Assembly (NCBI GenBank): GCA_026981635.1
Contig: JALSIF010000043.1
Coordinates: forward strand, 1 to 5,322
Reading direction: 5' to 3'
Source of the DNA: a bacterium
GTDB taxonomy: Bacteria; 4484-113; JALSIF01
Length of the DNA: 5,322 nt
In this document: positions 59 to 5,322 of the stretch, one piece after another
Numbering within the stretch: the first letter of the stretch is position 1
Layout of the letters: every line of letters begins with the position of its first letter
Program-made: the position numbers and the translations under genes
The notes under the pieces: model-generated
What the model was told of the DNA's origin: nothing
The model's database searches: none
Seen by the model: the letters and a program-made list of their open reading frames with translations, nothing else

Positions 59-784
59 TCAGCCCTCCGCCTGTCCCCCTTCTCCCTCGGCGTTGGGCTT
101 GAGGGCAAGCTCGGAGGGAGAGGAGCCTTCTTCGGTTCCTTCCTCTTCCTCTGCCTTTTCGTGGGAGTGGGAGAGAAAGATGGAGATCAGCACCAGCAAA
201 ACGCCGATGGAGGCCAGGCTGTCGGCCACGTTAAAGACCGGGAAATCCCACGGCGGGCGCCCGGGGAGGGGGATGAGAACGTCTATGAAGTCCACCACCA
301 CCGCCATGCGCAGGCGGTCAACGAAGTTGCCCATGGCGCCGGCCACAATGAGGATGAGCCCCCAGCCGGCGAAGCGGTCTCGGTAGGCAACCTTGTGCCA
401 GTAGATAAGTAGCAGAAGGATTAGTAGGGCACTAAACAGAGCAAGCAGGCGGGGATAGCCGGAGAAAATACTCCAGGCGGCTCCGTCGTTTAGGGCCAGC
501 TTAAAGGTGAGCCAGTCGCCCAGCAAGCGCAGAGGAGGAGCAAAGGGACGGTAGGGAAAATCTTCCATTCCAACCGAGTGGAGGGAGAAGTAGCGAAGTA
601 GGAAGCTGGGCAGGGGGCCGCTTGTACTTCCCAGATAGTAGACTGCAAGAGCCTTACTTAGCTGATCCAGAGCCAGCCCCAGGCTCACAACAACCAGCAT
701 CAGGGACCAGGGGCGGCGGGGGGAGGAGTTCTGTGCCCCCTGGCTAGATGCCCCGGCTGGCGTCAATCTCCTGCTGGGCCTCAA
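59..784 (-). CDS. lspA: Lipoprotein signal peptidase (signal peptidase II)
   Basis: LspA is the inner-membrane aspartyl protease that removes the signal peptide from diacylglyceryl-modified prolipoproteins. Family blocks are all present: DQLSK (40-44) in TM1, NDGAAWSIF (99-107), GAMGNFVDRLR (149-159), VVDFID (163-168) and FNVADS (184-189); Asp165 and Asp188 form the expected catalytic pair. Four hydrophobic segments fit TM helices near 27-50, 111-129, 139-157 and 184-204. At 241 residues it is longer than typical members (about 150-170): it has a roughly 28-residue TTG-dependent N-terminal leader, a loop of about 55 residues between TM1 and the NxGAAW motif, and a 37-residue Glu/Gly-rich tail. 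The TTG at 784 lies within the dksA-like gene; TTG at 766 or ATG at 700 are alternative starts, the last just at TM1. No good Shine-Dalgarno decides between them. Confidence 0.95.
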   Translation of the reverse strand: MRPSRRLTPAGASSQGAQNSSPRRPWSLMLVVVSLGLALDQLSKALAVYYLGSTSGPLPSFLLRYFSLHSVGMEDFPYRPFAPPLRLLGDWLTFKLALNDGAAWSIFSGYPRLLALFSALLILLLLIYWHKVAYRDRFAGWGLILIVAGAMGNFVDRLRMAVVVDFIDVLIPLPGRPPWDFPVFNVADSLASIGVLLVLISIFLSHSHEKAEEEEGTEEGSSPSELALKPNAEGEGGQAEG

Positions 785-1325
785 AGGAGTACTTTGCCCA
801 AGGGATGGCCTTGAGCCGCTCCTTGGAGATGGGCTTGCCGGTGCGGCGGCAGAAGCCGTAGGTGCCGTCCTCTATGGCCTGGAGGGCCTCGTCAATGAGC
901 TTGAGGTTGCGCTCCAGCTGGGCCACCAGCTGCTCGTCCTTGGCCAGCTCGGTGGTCTCGGTGATCAGGTCGCTGTCGGGGTCACCGCTGTTTCGCTCGT
1001 GGAGCAGCTCTCCGGCCAGAGCCTTCTGGATCTTCTTGCGCAGACCAGTGAGCTCCTTCTGGATCTCCTCCCGCTTCTCCAAAAGTAGCTTCTTGAAGTA
1101 GTCCAGCTCCTTGTCGGAGAAGCGGGGGTGGTTGTAGCGACGCTTGGCCGACCCAGCGGTTGACTTCTTGGCGGCGGACTTGCCGGCCGCCTGCTTGGAG
1201 CCTTTTGAGTTGGTCTTGGTCTTCTTGCTGGCCAACTTCTCGTTCACCTCCGCATCCTTCTGGGCTCGCCTTCCACCGCCTCGCTTTGCTATACCCCGGC
1301 TAGAGGGAGAAAGCTTTCCTGGCAT
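744..1325 (-). CDS. dksA: TraR/DksA family protein with degenerate zinc finger and basic N-terminal tail
   Basis: DksA-type proteins bind in the secondary channel of RNA polymerase and tune transcription, often with ppGpp. The C-terminal half shows the family architecture: a long coiled coil (helices around LDYFKKLLLEKREEI and DEQLVAQLERNLKLIDEAL) and the globular YGFCRRTGKPISKERL...AIPWAKYSFEA module. The usual C-x2-C-x17-C-x2-C finger reads C, T, S, A, so only one of four zinc cysteines remains; spacing and fold residues are kept, as in known cysteine-poor DksA variants. The first 60-65 residues are Lys/Ala/Ser-rich and probably disordered, like histone H1-type tails. The start is uncertain: ATG at 1325 (193 aa) is preferred, TTG at 1346 (200 aa) is possible, and neither has a Shine-Dalgarno. 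The gene overlaps tatD at its 5' end and lspA at its 3' end, implying coupled translation. Confidence 0.88.
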   Translation of the reverse strand: MPGKLSPSSRGIAKRGGGRRAQKDAEVNEKLASKKTKTNSKGSKQAAGKSAAKKSTAGSAKRRYNHPRFSDKELDYFKKLLLEKREEIQKELTGLRKKIQKALAGELLHERNSGDPDSDLITETTELAKDEQLVAQLERNLKLIDEALQAIEDGTYGFCRRTGKPISKERLKAIPWAKYSFEAQQEIDASRGI

Positions 1326-2052
1326 TTGAGGCTGTTTGAGCGGCAAATTCTACCAGACTGGTCGCCCTAAGGTGGGCAACCCTTTCCGCCGTCGCCACCA
1401 GCATGGCGGGGTGGGAGGGTCTCCCCCGCCAGGGGTGGGGAGCAAGAAACGGCGCATCGGTCTCCAAAAGCACATAGGAGGGATGGAGATTCTTTGCTGC
1501 ATGTTCAATGTCCGGGTCGCCATAGGTGGCGTTGCCGGCAAAGCCGAAGTAGGCTTGGTGGGAGGTTCCCCAGGCCAAGATATCGGGGGAACCGTCAAAA
1601 CAGTGGAAGATGAAGCGAACCTCCGGGTAGCGGCTCACTACGGCCAGTACCTCGGCGGGGGCGCTTCGCTGGTGGACCACCACCGGGAGATGGCGCTCCC
1701 TAGCCAGCTCAATCTGGCCAGCAAACAGCTCCTGCTGGTAGTGGAGGGGGGTGGTCTGGTGGTGGAGGTCAATGCCGCACTCGCCCACCGCCACCGGGGA
1801 GGGTTCTTCCTCAAAAAACCCCGCCAGCTCCCGCAGAGCGGTGGGGGGATGGTGGTAGGCGGGGTGGAGTCCGGCGGTGAAGTGGATCCGGCCGGGGAAG
1901 GCGCGGGCCAGCTCGCGGGCCTTATGGCTGGTCTCCAAGTCAATGCCGATCAGGATGAGGGCGGCAAAGCCGGCCCGGAGGAGACGGGAGATGGTCTCCC
2001 GCTGGGGGGAGAAGTGGTCAAAGTAGAGGTGGCTGTGGGTGTCAATGAACAA
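1300..2052 (-). CDS. tatD: TatD family metal-dependent deoxyribonuclease/hydrolase
   Basis: The 250-residue protein is a full-length TatD-type TIM-barrel hydrolase. All expected metal ligands are present: His6 and His8 in DTHSHL, Glu91 in GECGIDL, His127 in VVVHQR, His150 in FIFHCF and Asp199 in LLETDAPFLAP, followed by the RGRPSHP form of the family's third signature. Characterised members (TatD, YcfH-like) are cytoplasmic metal-dependent nucleases acting on DNA ends; the exact substrate here cannot be told. The start is TTG, chosen because family proteins begin with M-(F/L)-(I/V)-D-(T/S)-H-(S/C)-H. It lies 5 bases after the fapA-like stop with no recognisable Shine-Dalgarno, which suggests translation by reinitiation. 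Its 3' end overlaps the dksA-like gene. Confidence 0.93.
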   Translation of the reverse strand: MFIDTHSHLYFDHFSPQRETISRLLRAGFAALILIGIDLETSHKARELARAFPGRIHFTAGLHPAYHHPPTALRELAGFFEEEPSPVAVGECGIDLHHQTTPLHYQQELFAGQIELARERHLPVVVHQRSAPAEVLAVVSRYPEVRFIFHCFDGSPDILAWGTSHQAYFGFAGNATYGDPDIEHAAKNLHPSYVLLETDAPFLAPHPWRGRPSHPAMLVATAERVAHLRATSLVEFAAQTASNARKAFSL

Positions 2053-2057
2053 GGGAG

Positions 2058-3470
2058 CTATTTCTTGCGCATCGCCCGCAGGCGAACCTTGCCCTGGACC
2101 ACGTAGAGCACCACCGAGCGTAGCTCCTCAATGGGCTTAAAGATGGCTCCCTGCAGGATCACCATCACCCCGGGGTAGAGGGTACCGGAGACCTCAACGG
2201 TTGACTTGGGGGCAAAGCTGAGCAGTTTGGAGAGCTCCTCCAGTCGCTCGGCGATGCGGGCAAGCTCCTTCTCCACCACATATTTCTGGTCCTCCAGCAG
2301 GGCCTTGATCTCTCGCTGGCGGGGAGAGATGACCCGCTTCTGCTTGAGCACCTCTAGACCCTGGTTAATCCGCTCCAGCCGGTGGAGATAGTCGCTCTGG
2401 CGGTCGCAAAGCTCCTCGTACTCGGTGGAGAGGATGGGGTTTCTGCCCACCTCCACCCGGGTGAAGGTGCCCATTGGGCTGCCCAGCTGGGTGGTCTCCA
2501 GGCGGTGGTGGACCCGGGCGCTGCCCCCTACCAGCCCGGCGTTTCCCCTGACGGTGAGGCTCCCCCCCACCAGGGTGTCACAGTGGCGGAGTCCCTCCTC
2601 CACCTCTAGGTCGCCTCCCACCTGGACCTTTGCCCCATCGGCGGAACGGATGCGAGCCCGGCCACCTGCCTTAATCTCGCAGTCTCCCTTGCCGAAGACC
2701 CGGCCCTCTATCACCAGGTCACCACCCGCCTCCACCTGGGCCTTCTCCACGAAGCCACGGATGACCAGGTTGCCCCCCGCCCGCACCCGGAAGTCGGGGT
2801 TGACATTGCCGTCAATGGTCAGGTGGCCGCCGAAGTCCAGGTTGCCGGTGGTGTAGTCCACGTCGCCCTGAATGAAGATGCGATCCAGCAGGGAGAGCTG
2901 GTCACCTGACAGAACGACGTGGCCACCGCACTCGGCCACGATGGTGGTGCGGTCTTCACTGTAGCGCAGGTTCTCCCCCGGGTGGTAGCGGGGGTGGCGC
3001 ACCTTCTTTACCTTGATTCTTTTGCCGGTGACGGTAAATCCCTCCTCACCCGGGTCGGGGCTGCGCAGGTAGGCCACCACCTGACCGGGGGCGACGTTGT
3101 TGAAGCGCTTGAGGTCGCGAAAGTCCACACTGCCGTCGGGACGGGTCTTTAGCCCCTCGGCGTGCTCCTCAATGTCTACCGCCAGCACCCACTTGCCCTC
3201 GTCGGCGGGGCGCATCTCCCGCCCCCGGGCAACCACCACCGGCTGCTCATAGATCGGCTCGGCCAGGAGCTGCTCAATGGCCGGCCAATCAATCCCCTCC
3301 ACCACCCCAGCCTCCTTGAGCAAGCTTGCGATCTCCTGGGGGGAGATGGGAGGGTCCCCCTGGTGGGGAGGGTGGAGGGTGAGGCGGGCCTCCATCTGGT
3401 CGGAACTGACCGAGATGTCGGCCTGATAGGCCAGGGAGGTGGGACGGGATGGAGTCTTTGCTTCGCTCAA
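2058..3470 (-). CDS. FapA family (DUF342) beta-solenoid protein
   Basis: The 470-residue product matches the FapA/DUF342 layout. An N-terminal domain (about 15-190) contains family-like stretches such as DGSVDFRDL, GFTVTGKRI and a YSEDRTTIVAECGGHVVL segment. A right-handed beta-solenoid follows (about 195-330), whose coils each carry a GG turn before a short strand: GG at 214, 232, 249, 269, 285, 302 and 315. Next is a charged, probably coiled-coil helix (about 345-415) and a small C-terminal beta domain (VEVSGTLYPGVMVIL). No signal peptide or membrane segment is seen, so it is probably cytoplasmic. A Vibrio FapA has been linked to flagellar assembly and chemotaxis, but most members have no known role and no flagellar gene is nearby. 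It starts with TTG behind a strong ribosome binding site and ends with TAG 5 bases before tatD, apparently as first gene of the cluster. Confidence 0.9.
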   Translation of the reverse strand: MSEAKTPSRPTSLAYQADISVSSDQMEARLTLHPPHQGDPPISPQEIASLLKEAGVVEGIDWPAIEQLLAEPIYEQPVVVARGREMRPADEGKWVLAVDIEEHAEGLKTRPDGSVDFRDLKRFNNVAPGQVVAYLRSPDPGEEGFTVTGKRIKVKKVRHPRYHPGENLRYSEDRTTIVAECGGHVVLSGDQLSLLDRIFIQGDVDYTTGNLDFGGHLTIDGNVNPDFRVRAGGNLVIRGFVEKAQVEAGGDLVIEGRVFGKGDCEIKAGGRARIRSADGAKVQVGGDLEVEEGLRHCDTLVGGSLTVRGNAGLVGGSARVHHRLETTQLGSPMGTFTRVEVGRNPILSTEYEELCDRQSDYLHRLERINQGLEVLKQKRVISPRQREIKALLEDQKYVVEKELARIAERLEELSKLLSFAPKSTVEVSGTLYPGVMVILQGAIFKPIEELRSVVLYVVQGKVRLRAMRKK

Positions 3471-3545: not shown

Positions 3546-5322
3546 CTAGGCCATCTCCTCCATCAGCTCTTTGGGGGTGAGGCGGAAGGCGCCCTTGACC
3601 TCCGGCCTCTCTTCAACGATGTCGCGCACGATCTGGTTCAGGCTCTCAATGTCGGTGGGGCGGGCAAAGAGGGCCTTTTGTCCCGGCGAGCGCTCCCTTC
3701 CGTCCAGCACCAGGATGCTCACCCCGCGGGCGTTGCCAAAGGGGGGAAGCTTGATCAGGCAGAAGATGTCTGCCCGGTCGGTCATCTCACGGAAGAAGTC
3801 GTGGCCCTTGACCTGCTGGAGGAACTCGTCGGTGACGAAGCAGGCCACCCTGCCCTGGGGGGTGATGTTGTTTAGGGCGTGGTCAATGTAGTTGGCCACC
3901 AGATTGGCGTCGCCCTTGAAGGCGAAGTTGCCCGCGATGAGGTCAAACTTGAGGTCGCTTACCTCCTCGCCGAAGATGCGGTCAAGCTGGGTGAAGAAGT
4001 CAAGCTGGGCAACGAACAGCTTGGGGAAGCCGGAGAGCAGGGCGACCATCTGGGTGGCCTTGGCCAGCACCGGGTCGGTCTCCAGGGAGACGAAGTTGTA
4101 GGTCAGGAAGTGGTCAACGAAGTCGTACTGGCTGAGGAAAAAACTCTCCTTGGCCTTCTCCAGCAGGGGGGCATCGGTGGCGTCCACCAGGACTATCTCG
4201 CCCTCGTCGGTCAGCACCTCTATCAGTCCATCCTCCCCCAGCGCCCAGCGGGCGTTCTCCAGCGAGTCGTAGACGTGGGAGACCAGTGAGACTGCCACCA
4301 GCCCGTCGCCGGCGGCCGGGTTGATGACCAGCTGGTTGATGGAGGGGGCAGCAAGCTGGGCCAGGTAGCGGCAGTAGTCGCGGGGGATGGGAATGCGGTA
4401 CTGGGTGTAGTTCTGGTAGTTGTGGTAGAGCAGGTCCTCCACCTTGCGCACCGAGAGGGGACCGTGGACGGTGACCTTCTCCTCGCTCCCCATGCTGGCA
4501 AGCTCAGTCAGGAAGTTGATCACCTCCAGGCGCTGGTGCTTGTTGAGGTGACGCTCGCGGGGCAGGGTCTCAATGCGGTTGAAGTTCTTCCCCCTAAGCT
4601 CCTCCCGCTCAAGCCCCAGCACCGCCCGGCGATCGCTGGGGGGCTGCTCCCCCTCGCCCTCCTTTTCCAGCCGCTCCTTTACCTTCTTCTTGAGTTTCAT
4701 CTTGAGGGGGGACTCGGCCTCGCGCTTGGCCTTGCCCTTTCCCTTCTTGGTCTGCTGTTCGCGGGTCCCCTCAATGAATGCCTGGGCAAACTCCTGTTCC
4801 AAGGTGGGGGAGACACCCTTCTTGGGGGTGATGTCAAAGCCGGCGATGCGCGCCTTCTCCTGCCTGGCCTCCTCGGCCGCCTGCTGGCGCTCGGTCAGGT
4901 CCCAAAGCTTCCTCACCCGGGTGAAACGGCTGTCCATCTCGGGGGTGAAGATGACCAGCTCCCGGTCCAGCTCGGGGTTCTTCTCCAGCACCCGGCGAAG
5001 GATCTCCTTCTCATTCAGGGGGCGACCGGCCTCCTTGAGTACCTGGTAGGCCTGGGGATTTACATCAATCCACTCCTTTCTTCCCCAGCGGCCCTTGTGA
5101 CGGCGCAGTCCCTCCACCTTGGCGGGGTCCAGGGCGACCTGGGAGTACTTGATGCCCAGCTTCTTGGCCACCGCCCGCTTTAGATCGCGCTCGGTGACGA
5201 AGCGGCGGAGCTCATCAATCGCCTCCATCACCACCTGGTGTTCGGGGAGCTTGGCCTTGCTTATCCGCCAGAGCTTCTGCTTCTTGCCCTCTCTGGTGGA
5301 GGTGCGACCGGAGAAGTAGTCG
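3546..5322 (-). CDS. Tandem winged-helix (HARE-HTH-like) plus N6-adenine DNA methyltransferase-like protein, 5' end off window
   Basis: The frame stays open to the right edge (29 further codons upstream of the first available GTG at 5234), so the gene is 5'-partial with about 591 codons visible. Residues are numbered here from that GTG. The N-terminal part holds repeated winged-helix units ending in KLWRI, GRWGRKEW (48-55) and KLWDLT (109-114); the last (about 61-115) resembles HARE-HTH/RNA polymerase delta domains. A charged Lys/Glu/Gln-rich linker spans about 116-220. From about 275 comes a type I HsdM-like methyltransferase fold: IPIPRDY entry helix, SAM-binding motif I NPAAGDG (305-311), then DLIAGNFAF (431-439) where (N/D)PP(F/Y) is expected, then the QGRVACFVTDEFL strand and LPPFG-NARGVSILVLDG. 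Asn436 and Phe439 are kept but the Pro-Pro pair is Phe-Ala, so catalysis is doubtful. No restriction or specificity subunit is visible. The fold assignment is fairly firm; the role (DNA-binding regulator, pseudo-methylase or orphan methylase) is inference. Confidence 0.8.
   Translation of the reverse strand, partial: DYFSGRTSTREGKKQKLWRISKAKLPEHQVVMEAIDELRRFVTERDLKRAVAKKLGIKYSQVALDPAKVEGLRRHKGRWGRKEWIDVNPQAYQVLKEAGRPLNEKEILRRVLEKNPELDRELVIFTPEMDSRFTRVRKLWDLTERQQAAEEARQEKARIAGFDITPKKGVSPTLEQEFAQAFIEGTREQQTKKGKGKAKREAESPLKMKLKKKVKERLEKEGEGEQPPSDRRAVLGLEREELRGKNFNRIETLPRERHLNKHQRLEVINFLTELASMGSEEKVTVHGPLSVRKVEDLLYHNYQNYTQYRIPIPRDYCRYLAQLAAPSINQLVINPAAGDGLVAVSLVSHVYDSLENARWALGEDGLIEVLTDEGEIVLVDATDAPLLEKAKESFFLSQYDFVDHFLTYNFVSLETDPVLAKATQMVALLSGFPKLFVAQLDFFTQLDRIFGEEVSDLKFDLIAGNFAFKGDANLVANYIDHALNNITPQGRVACFVTDEFLQQVKGHDFFREMTDRADIFCLIKLPPFGNARGVSILVLDGRERSPGQKALFARPTDIESLNQIVRDIVEERPEVKGAFRLTPKELMEEMA
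4890..5322 (-). repeat. Protein-level tandem winged-helix repeats, 61-residue period
   Basis: Three tryptophans that close winged-helix-like units (in KLWRI, GRW and KLW) are spaced exactly 61 codons apart, twice. Aligning the two complete units without gaps on that tryptophan matches W at 0, R at -5, P at -13, V at -17, K at -26, R at -30, L at -32 and R at -40, with L/F at -7 and -15 also similar. The most upstream unit is cut by the window edge. This supports an internal duplication of a small DNA-binding domain; the HARE-HTH name is by resemblance only. Confidence 0.6.

What the first reader, a model, noticed from the sequence alone, without database searches (positions are those of the whole stretch)
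3918..3929. Methyltransferase fold with NFAF in place of the catalytic NPPF motif
The protein keeps the order and spacing of a type I-like N6-adenine methyltransferase (motif I NPAAGDG, LPPFG strand late in the fold), but motif IV reads N-F-A-F. The Asn that contacts the target amino group and the stacking Phe survive while both prolines are gone. Motif I also begins with Asn rather than the usual Asp. With no restriction or specificity subunit visible and DNA-binding repeats fused in front, this may be a methylase-derived DNA reader or a divergent active enzyme.
Basis: partly seen in the sequence, partly recalled or inferred. Interest (0 to 1): 0.62.

Follow-up and report, generated by a model that had tools for sequence, protein, structure and literature searches.

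The report
Conserved dead-looking DNA methylase with winged helices
In every sampled genome of one uncultured bacterial phylum a single, strongly conserved protein carries a DNA-methylase fold whose catalytic and cofactor-holding residues have been replaced, behind a row of winged-helix domains, so it is probably a DNA or transcription factor made from an old methylase and not a working enzyme.

Summary
NFAF lies at 3918-3929 (-), exactly where an HsdM-type N6-adenine methylase has NPPF. It is not an error or decay: all 10 genomes held of this candidate phylum have one copy, motif IV is N-[FLIY]-[TIA]-F in all ten, and the domain is under purifying selection (dN/dS 0.06-0.14). True methylases of the same phylum (13 loci) and 12 ordinary methylases found with the family's own profile carry NPP[FYW].

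The acids of motifs II and III, which hold ribose and adenine, are kept, as are the Asn and Phe of motif IV. Relatives with the same layout in three other lineages also lack [ND]PP[FYW].

Best reading: a vertically inherited housekeeping pseudo-methyltransferase; HARE/RNAP-delta-like winged helices bind DNA or the transcription machinery, and the methylase fold is a non-catalytic scaffold or nucleoside/base sensor. A weakly active enzyme is not excluded. DNA binding, loss of activity and function are inferred; none was assayed.

The parts
3546..5321 (-). Open frame of the winged-helix/methylase-fold protein (591 residues, cut at the contig edge on its N-terminal side)
   Evidence: orthologues are about 60 residues longer
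5070..5258 (-). Winged helix 2, HARE/RNAP-delta-like (residues 22-84)
   Evidence: AF2 secondary structure; Foldseek match of the relatives' N-terminal model to RNAP delta 2krc, prob 0.99 but E 0.09
4893..5066 (-). Winged helix 3, HARE-HTH-like (residues 86-143)
   Evidence: Pfam HARE-HTH residues 90-115, 19.4 bits, below the 25.9 cut-off; 6 of 10 orthologues match, best E 2.4e-5
4572..4892 (-). Low-confidence charged linker (residues 144-250)
   Evidence: pLDDT under 50 over most of 160-242; Lys-rich in the window protein but charge not conserved
3549..4556 (-). HsdM-like methyltransferase-fold domain (residues 256-591)
   Evidence: VIA-align Z 21.2 to 2okc over 266 residues, aligned 269-591; dN/dS 0.14 and 0.06 in two orthologue pairs
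4374..4397 (-). Motif X position: Thr replaced (RIPIPRDY; Ile/Val in 10/10)
   Evidence: role of the Thr from CamA (PMC8187626)
4302..4322 (-). Motif I: NPAAGDG, Asp replaced by Asn (Asn/His in 10/10)
4074..4085 (-). Motif II: LETD, acid kept in 10/10
3996..4001 (-). Motif III: D441-F442, invariant in the phylum
3918..3929 (-). Motif IV: NFAF in place of NPPF (the finding)
2058..3470 (-). Downstream neighbour fapA (DUF342); also directly downstream in G001, G002, G004, G005 and G007
   Evidence: FapA E 1.5e-55
1300..2052 (-). Neighbour tatD
   Evidence: E 1.1e-59; also near the gene in G002, G003, G005, G006 and G008
744..1346 (-). Neighbour dksA/traR-type zinc-finger gene
   Evidence: E 1.3e-9
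59..784 (-). Neighbour lspA (signal peptidase II)
   Evidence: E 2.3e-29

Best explanation
It is a conserved pseudo-methyltransferase: about three HARE/RNAP-delta-like winged helices followed by an HsdM-like methylase fold that no longer methylates adenine in DNA. Shown here: the motif changes, their fixation across the phylum, purifying selection, vertical single-copy inheritance, and a housekeeping neighbourhood with no restriction or specificity genes beside the gene. Inferred: the winged helices bind DNA (or the transcription machinery), and the methylase fold works as a non-catalytic module, either a scaffold or a pocket for an adenine nucleoside or a flipped base, since it keeps the ribose- and adenine-holding acids and the base-cage Asn and Phe but has lost the residues that hold the methionine part of SAM and shape the catalytic loop.
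For: Motif IV is N-[FLIY]-[TIA]-F in 10/10. Motif X Thr->Ile/Val and motif I Asp->Asn/His in 10/10, while the acids of motifs II and III are kept; roles of those residues are taken from CamA, and the roles of the catalytic Asn and Pro carbonyl from M.TaqI and CamA. One copy in all 10 genomes of the phylum. The gene tree follows the genome families f2, f3, f4. dN/dS of the methylase-like domain is 0.14 and 0.06. Same-architecture proteins outside the phylum also lack [ND]PP[FYW]: DPPV, NPPS, HPPS, ADMT, GDFS/GDFG. Controls: 13 true N6_Mtase loci of the phylum and 12 of 12 ordinary methylases hit by the same profile have NPP[FYW]. No match in phages, plasmids or viral contigs. HsdS absent in 8/10 genomes. 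Three winged helices predicted in the N-terminal part.
Against: Asn465 and Phe468 are invariant, which is odd for a fully dead site and fits some base or ligand contact. N-x-P-Y enzymes (KsgA/Erm, from memory) show that the first proline is dispensable. In RM.BpuSI the Asn itself is needed for SAM binding, so keeping it could mean residual SAM binding. M.TaqI's own motif I (EPACAHG, seen) is already non-standard yet active. The N-terminal structural matches to RNAP delta are weak (E 0.09 or worse). No biochemistry exists.
Confidence: 0.6

Rival explanations
1. Divergent active methyltransferase: an orphan enzyme of a novel active-site type (N-x-x-F) acting on DNA, RNA or a protein, with the winged helices giving specificity in place of HsdS.
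For: Asn and aromatic of motif IV invariant, acids of motifs II and III kept; CamA shows that an orphan gamma-methylase can be lineage-wide and bind SAM weakly; strong purifying selection.
Against: Both catalytic-loop prolines, the motif I Asp and the motif X Thr are replaced in 10/10; same-architecture relatives vary at motif IV in other ways, which suggests that catalysis is not the conserved property.
Confidence: 0.17
2. Methylation reader: the domain keeps the base-flipping cage without catalysis and reports methylated or unmethylated sites made by other methylases, with output through the winged helices.
For: Asn and Phe cage residues kept; the window's genome has two PF01555-type methylases and 9 of 10 genomes have at least one; HARE-HTH domains are proposed modified-base readers.
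Against: PF01555 matches vary from 0 to 13 per genome across the phylum while this gene is always single copy; no target-recognition domain was identified in the model.
Confidence: 0.15
3. Part of a restriction-modification or MADS-type defence system.
For: PADLOC mad2 profile matches 254-529 with E 3.4e-11, and 6 of 10 orthologues match it.
Against: Universal, vertical and single copy; neighbours are housekeeping genes; HsdS absent in 8/10; not found in phages or plasmids. The match is confined to the generic methylase fold.
Confidence: 0.04
4. Sequencing error, local decay or pseudogene.
For: Single MAG contig, long branch in the tree (1.35).
Against: Same Pro-less motif in ten genomes, open frames throughout, dN/dS well under 1 in relatives.
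Confidence: 0.01

Closest known systems
HsdM / type I-like N6-adenine DNA methyltransferases (PF02384; 2okc, M.EcoKI) and M.TaqI
   Same: Same fold and motif order; Z 21.2 over 266 residues to 2okc; the Asn of motif IV
   Different: No NPP[FYW], no motif I Asp, no motif X Thr, no HsdS in most genomes, winged helices fused in front
CamA, orphan gamma-class adenine methylase of C. difficile
   Same: Fold (Z 20.1); lineage-wide orphan gene; acids of motifs II and III
   Different: CamA has Asp60, Thr32 and NPPY and a C-terminal recognition domain and is active
HARE-HTH proteins and RNA polymerase delta subunit (RpoE) N-terminal domain
   Same: Winged-helix repeats; Foldseek prob 0.99 to 2krc at E 0.09; HARE-HTH in 6 of 10 orthologues
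   Different: Tandem repeats fused to a methylase fold; delta has one such domain and an acidic tail (from memory)
DndH inactive DAM domain
   Same: DNA methylase fold with eroded SAM loop and [SDN]PP[FYW], proposed as a non-catalytic blocker (PMC10853773)
   Different: DndH belongs to a defence system with HerA/FtsK and REase domains; this one is a vertical housekeeping gene
MAD2 of the MADS defence system
   Same: Best PADLOC profile
   Different: No other mad genes seen nearby; match limited to the methylase fold
YtxK-type protein lmo1582 (2f8l)
   Same: Methylase fold (Z 18.6); from memory a restriction-free HsdM-like protein of Firmicutes
   Different: No winged-helix repeats; its motif IV was not examined here

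Membership tests
N6_Mtase / HsdM (PF02384) | HsdM-type fold | tested here: met
   Z 21.2, 3.7 A over 266 residues to 2okc
N6_Mtase / HsdM (PF02384) | Pfam gathering score | tested here: not met
   14.4 bits against 20.4
N6_Mtase / HsdM (PF02384) | Motif IV [ND]PP[FYW] | tested here: not met
   N-[FLIY]-[TIA]-F in 10/10
N6_Mtase / HsdM (PF02384) | Motif I acid and G-x-G | tested here: not met
   Asn/His in 10/10; first Gly kept only in the window protein
N6_Mtase / HsdM (PF02384) | HsdS partner | tested here: not met
   PF01420 in 2 of 10 genomes, not in the window's (85% complete)
N6_Mtase / HsdM (PF02384) | SAM-dependent m6A activity | not testable with these tools
   needs an assay
HARE-HTH (PF05066) | Winged-helix fold | tested here: met
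   predicted in the N-terminal model, pLDDT 79.5
HARE-HTH (PF05066) | Pfam gathering score | tested here: inconclusive
   window protein 19.4 of 25.9 bits; 6 of 10 orthologues match with E up to 1, best 2.4e-5
MADS (MAD2) | Neighbouring mad genes | tested here: not met
   neighbours fapA, tatD, dksA/traR, lspA; other loci likewise carry housekeeping genes
CamA-like orphan methylase | Thr (X), Asp (I), Asp (II), Asp (III), NPPY (IV) | tested here: not met
   only the II and III acids, and the Asn plus aromatic of IV, are kept

The most novel reading that the evidence does not exclude
A family of winged-helix/methylase-fold proteins spread over several deep uncultured lineages in which catalytic motif IV has been lost repeatedly and in different ways, so that the selected function is non-catalytic: a core chromosome or transcription factor built from a restriction methylase, whose pocket in this phylum may bind an adenine nucleoside other than SAM.
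Probability: 0.4. Interest if true: 0.72.

Novelty: new variant of a known kind. Interest (0 to 1): 0.52.

Why it matters
Pseudo-methylases are known one by one, but a phylum-wide, vertically kept one fused to RNAP-delta-like winged helices would be a clear case of a restriction enzyme part turned into a core cellular protein. It also warns that annotating such genes as 'N-6 DNA methylase' would probably be wrong, and it gives a ready test of which methylase-pocket residues are kept when catalysis is lost.

Tried and rejected
Local error or decay: rejected by ten orthologues and dN/dS. Defence or mobile element: no match in phages, plasmids or viral contigs, housekeeping neighbours. Acidic charge of the methylase-like domain as evidence against DNA contact: dropped, since ordinary methylases are acidic too. 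Methylase origin of the C-terminal part of the ~955-983 aa proteins in G090, G360 and G231: hhalign probability 16%, E 0.0016, left open. The first genome-contig scan with the single protein found nothing; the alignment found eight loci. NCBIfam gave no usable family. phmmer of the G244 relative against PDB gave nothing. Literature searches for M.EcoKI NPPF, YtxK, pseudo-methyltransferase with winged helix, and MADS gave no relevant paper; the HARE-HTH founding paper is not held.

Full report
What is there. The window is a whole 5322-base contig (G000:C43) of a metagenome-assembled genome of 1.75 Mb, 85% complete. The protein is read from the reverse strand, 3546-5321, and runs off the contig end, so its N-terminus is missing; relatives are about 60 residues longer. 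NFAF is at 3918-3929 as stated, residues 465-468 of the open frame.

Fold. An AF2 model from ten orthologues has mean pLDDT 72. Residues 269-591 align with HsdM-type methylases: 2okc Z 21.2, CamA 7lt5 Z 20.1, M.EcoKI 2ar0 Z 19.5, M.TaqI 1aqj Z 15.7. The profile finds M.TaqI at E 1e-4. The N-terminal part, modelled from nine complete relatives, forms three winged helices; Foldseek E-values are weak, but RNAP delta (2krc) is matched at prob 0.99, E 0.09, and Pfam HARE-HTH matches 6 of 10 orthologues (best E 2.4e-5), below the cut-off in the window protein.

Conservation. All 10 genomes held of the phylum have one orthologue (identities 29-34% to the window protein over the alignment). The gene tree groups the f2, f3 and f4 genomes by family, as expected of vertical descent. 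In 6 of 10 genomes including the window's a fapA (DUF342) gene lies directly downstream, and tatD, dksA/traR and lspA follow in several. Two close pairs give dN/dS 0.14 and 0.06 in the methylase-like domain; synonymous sites are near saturation in the second pair, so these values are rough.

Motifs. Motif IV is N-[FLIY]-[TIA]-F in all ten. Motif X Thr is Ile or Val, and the motif I Asp is Asn (six) or His (four). Motif II keeps an acid and motif III keeps Asp. In CamA, Thr32 and Asp60 hold the methionine end of SAM, Asp114 the ribose, Asp149 the adenine; Asn165 and the Pro166 carbonyl hold the target adenine, Pro167 stacks on the SAM ribose and Tyr168 on the base (PMC8187626). So this phylum has lost the contacts to the methionine end and the two prolines, and has kept the contacts to ribose, adenine and target base. 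The assignment rests on sequence alignment, not on a superposition of coordinates.

Controls. True N6_Mtase loci of the same phylum have NPP[FYW] in 13 of the 15 loci fetched; the other two showed no recognisable motif in the scan. Twelve of 12 ordinary methylases that the family profile drew from other genomes have NPPF with an intact motif I.

Relatives elsewhere. The same layout, winged helices then methylase fold, occurs in G244 (motif IV DPPV) and G385 (NPPS) of one small phylum, in G249 (HPPS) and in four genomes of one family, G391, G422, G423, G424 (ADMT, GDFS, GDFG). These keep the motif I Asp and the motif X Thr. None of the 17 proteins has [ND]PP[FYW]. That the two halves of the site are lost in different lineages suggests that methyl transfer is not what selection keeps, but only about four lineages are sampled.

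Context. The window's genome has no PF02384 match over the threshold, no HsdS and two PF01555 methylases, so some DNA methylation is likely and a reader role cannot be excluded. No relative was found in phages, plasmids or viral contigs.

Explanation. I commit to a pseudo-methyltransferase that acts through its winged helices on DNA or the transcription machinery, with the methylase fold as scaffold or nucleoside/base sensor (0.60). Shown: sequence facts, conservation, selection, inheritance. Inferred: loss of activity, DNA binding, function. A precedent for an eroded, non-catalytic DNA methylase is DndH (PMC10853773). The main rival is an active enzyme of unusual type (0.17); the retained Asn matters here, since in RM.BpuSI its loss abolishes SAM binding (PMC3817140).

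Noticed in passing
L042 (G385:C21), L076 (G085), L077 (G227): The same winged-helix module heads proteins with unrelated C-terminal parts; in G085 and G227 the gene sits beside a pilB/gspE-type ATPase gene.
   Followed up: partly
L073, L074, L075 (G090, G360, G231): Proteins of about 955-983 aa with the winged-helix module and a C-terminal stretch with a motif-I-like PAGHGE; relation to the methylase fold inconclusive.
   Followed up: partly
window 2058-3470: fapA (DUF342) directly downstream of the gene in 6 of 10 genomes of the phylum; possible functional link.
   Followed up: partly
residue 359 of the protein, window 4245-4247: An invariant Trp in a segment between motifs I and II is shared with G244 and G385 and supports common descent.
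   Followed up: no
L017:4171-4629 and L018:4336-4773: Upstream of the gene in two genomes, a Lys-rich protein containing 'SYKVGDVVKFDKVR' with no Pfam match.
   Followed up: no
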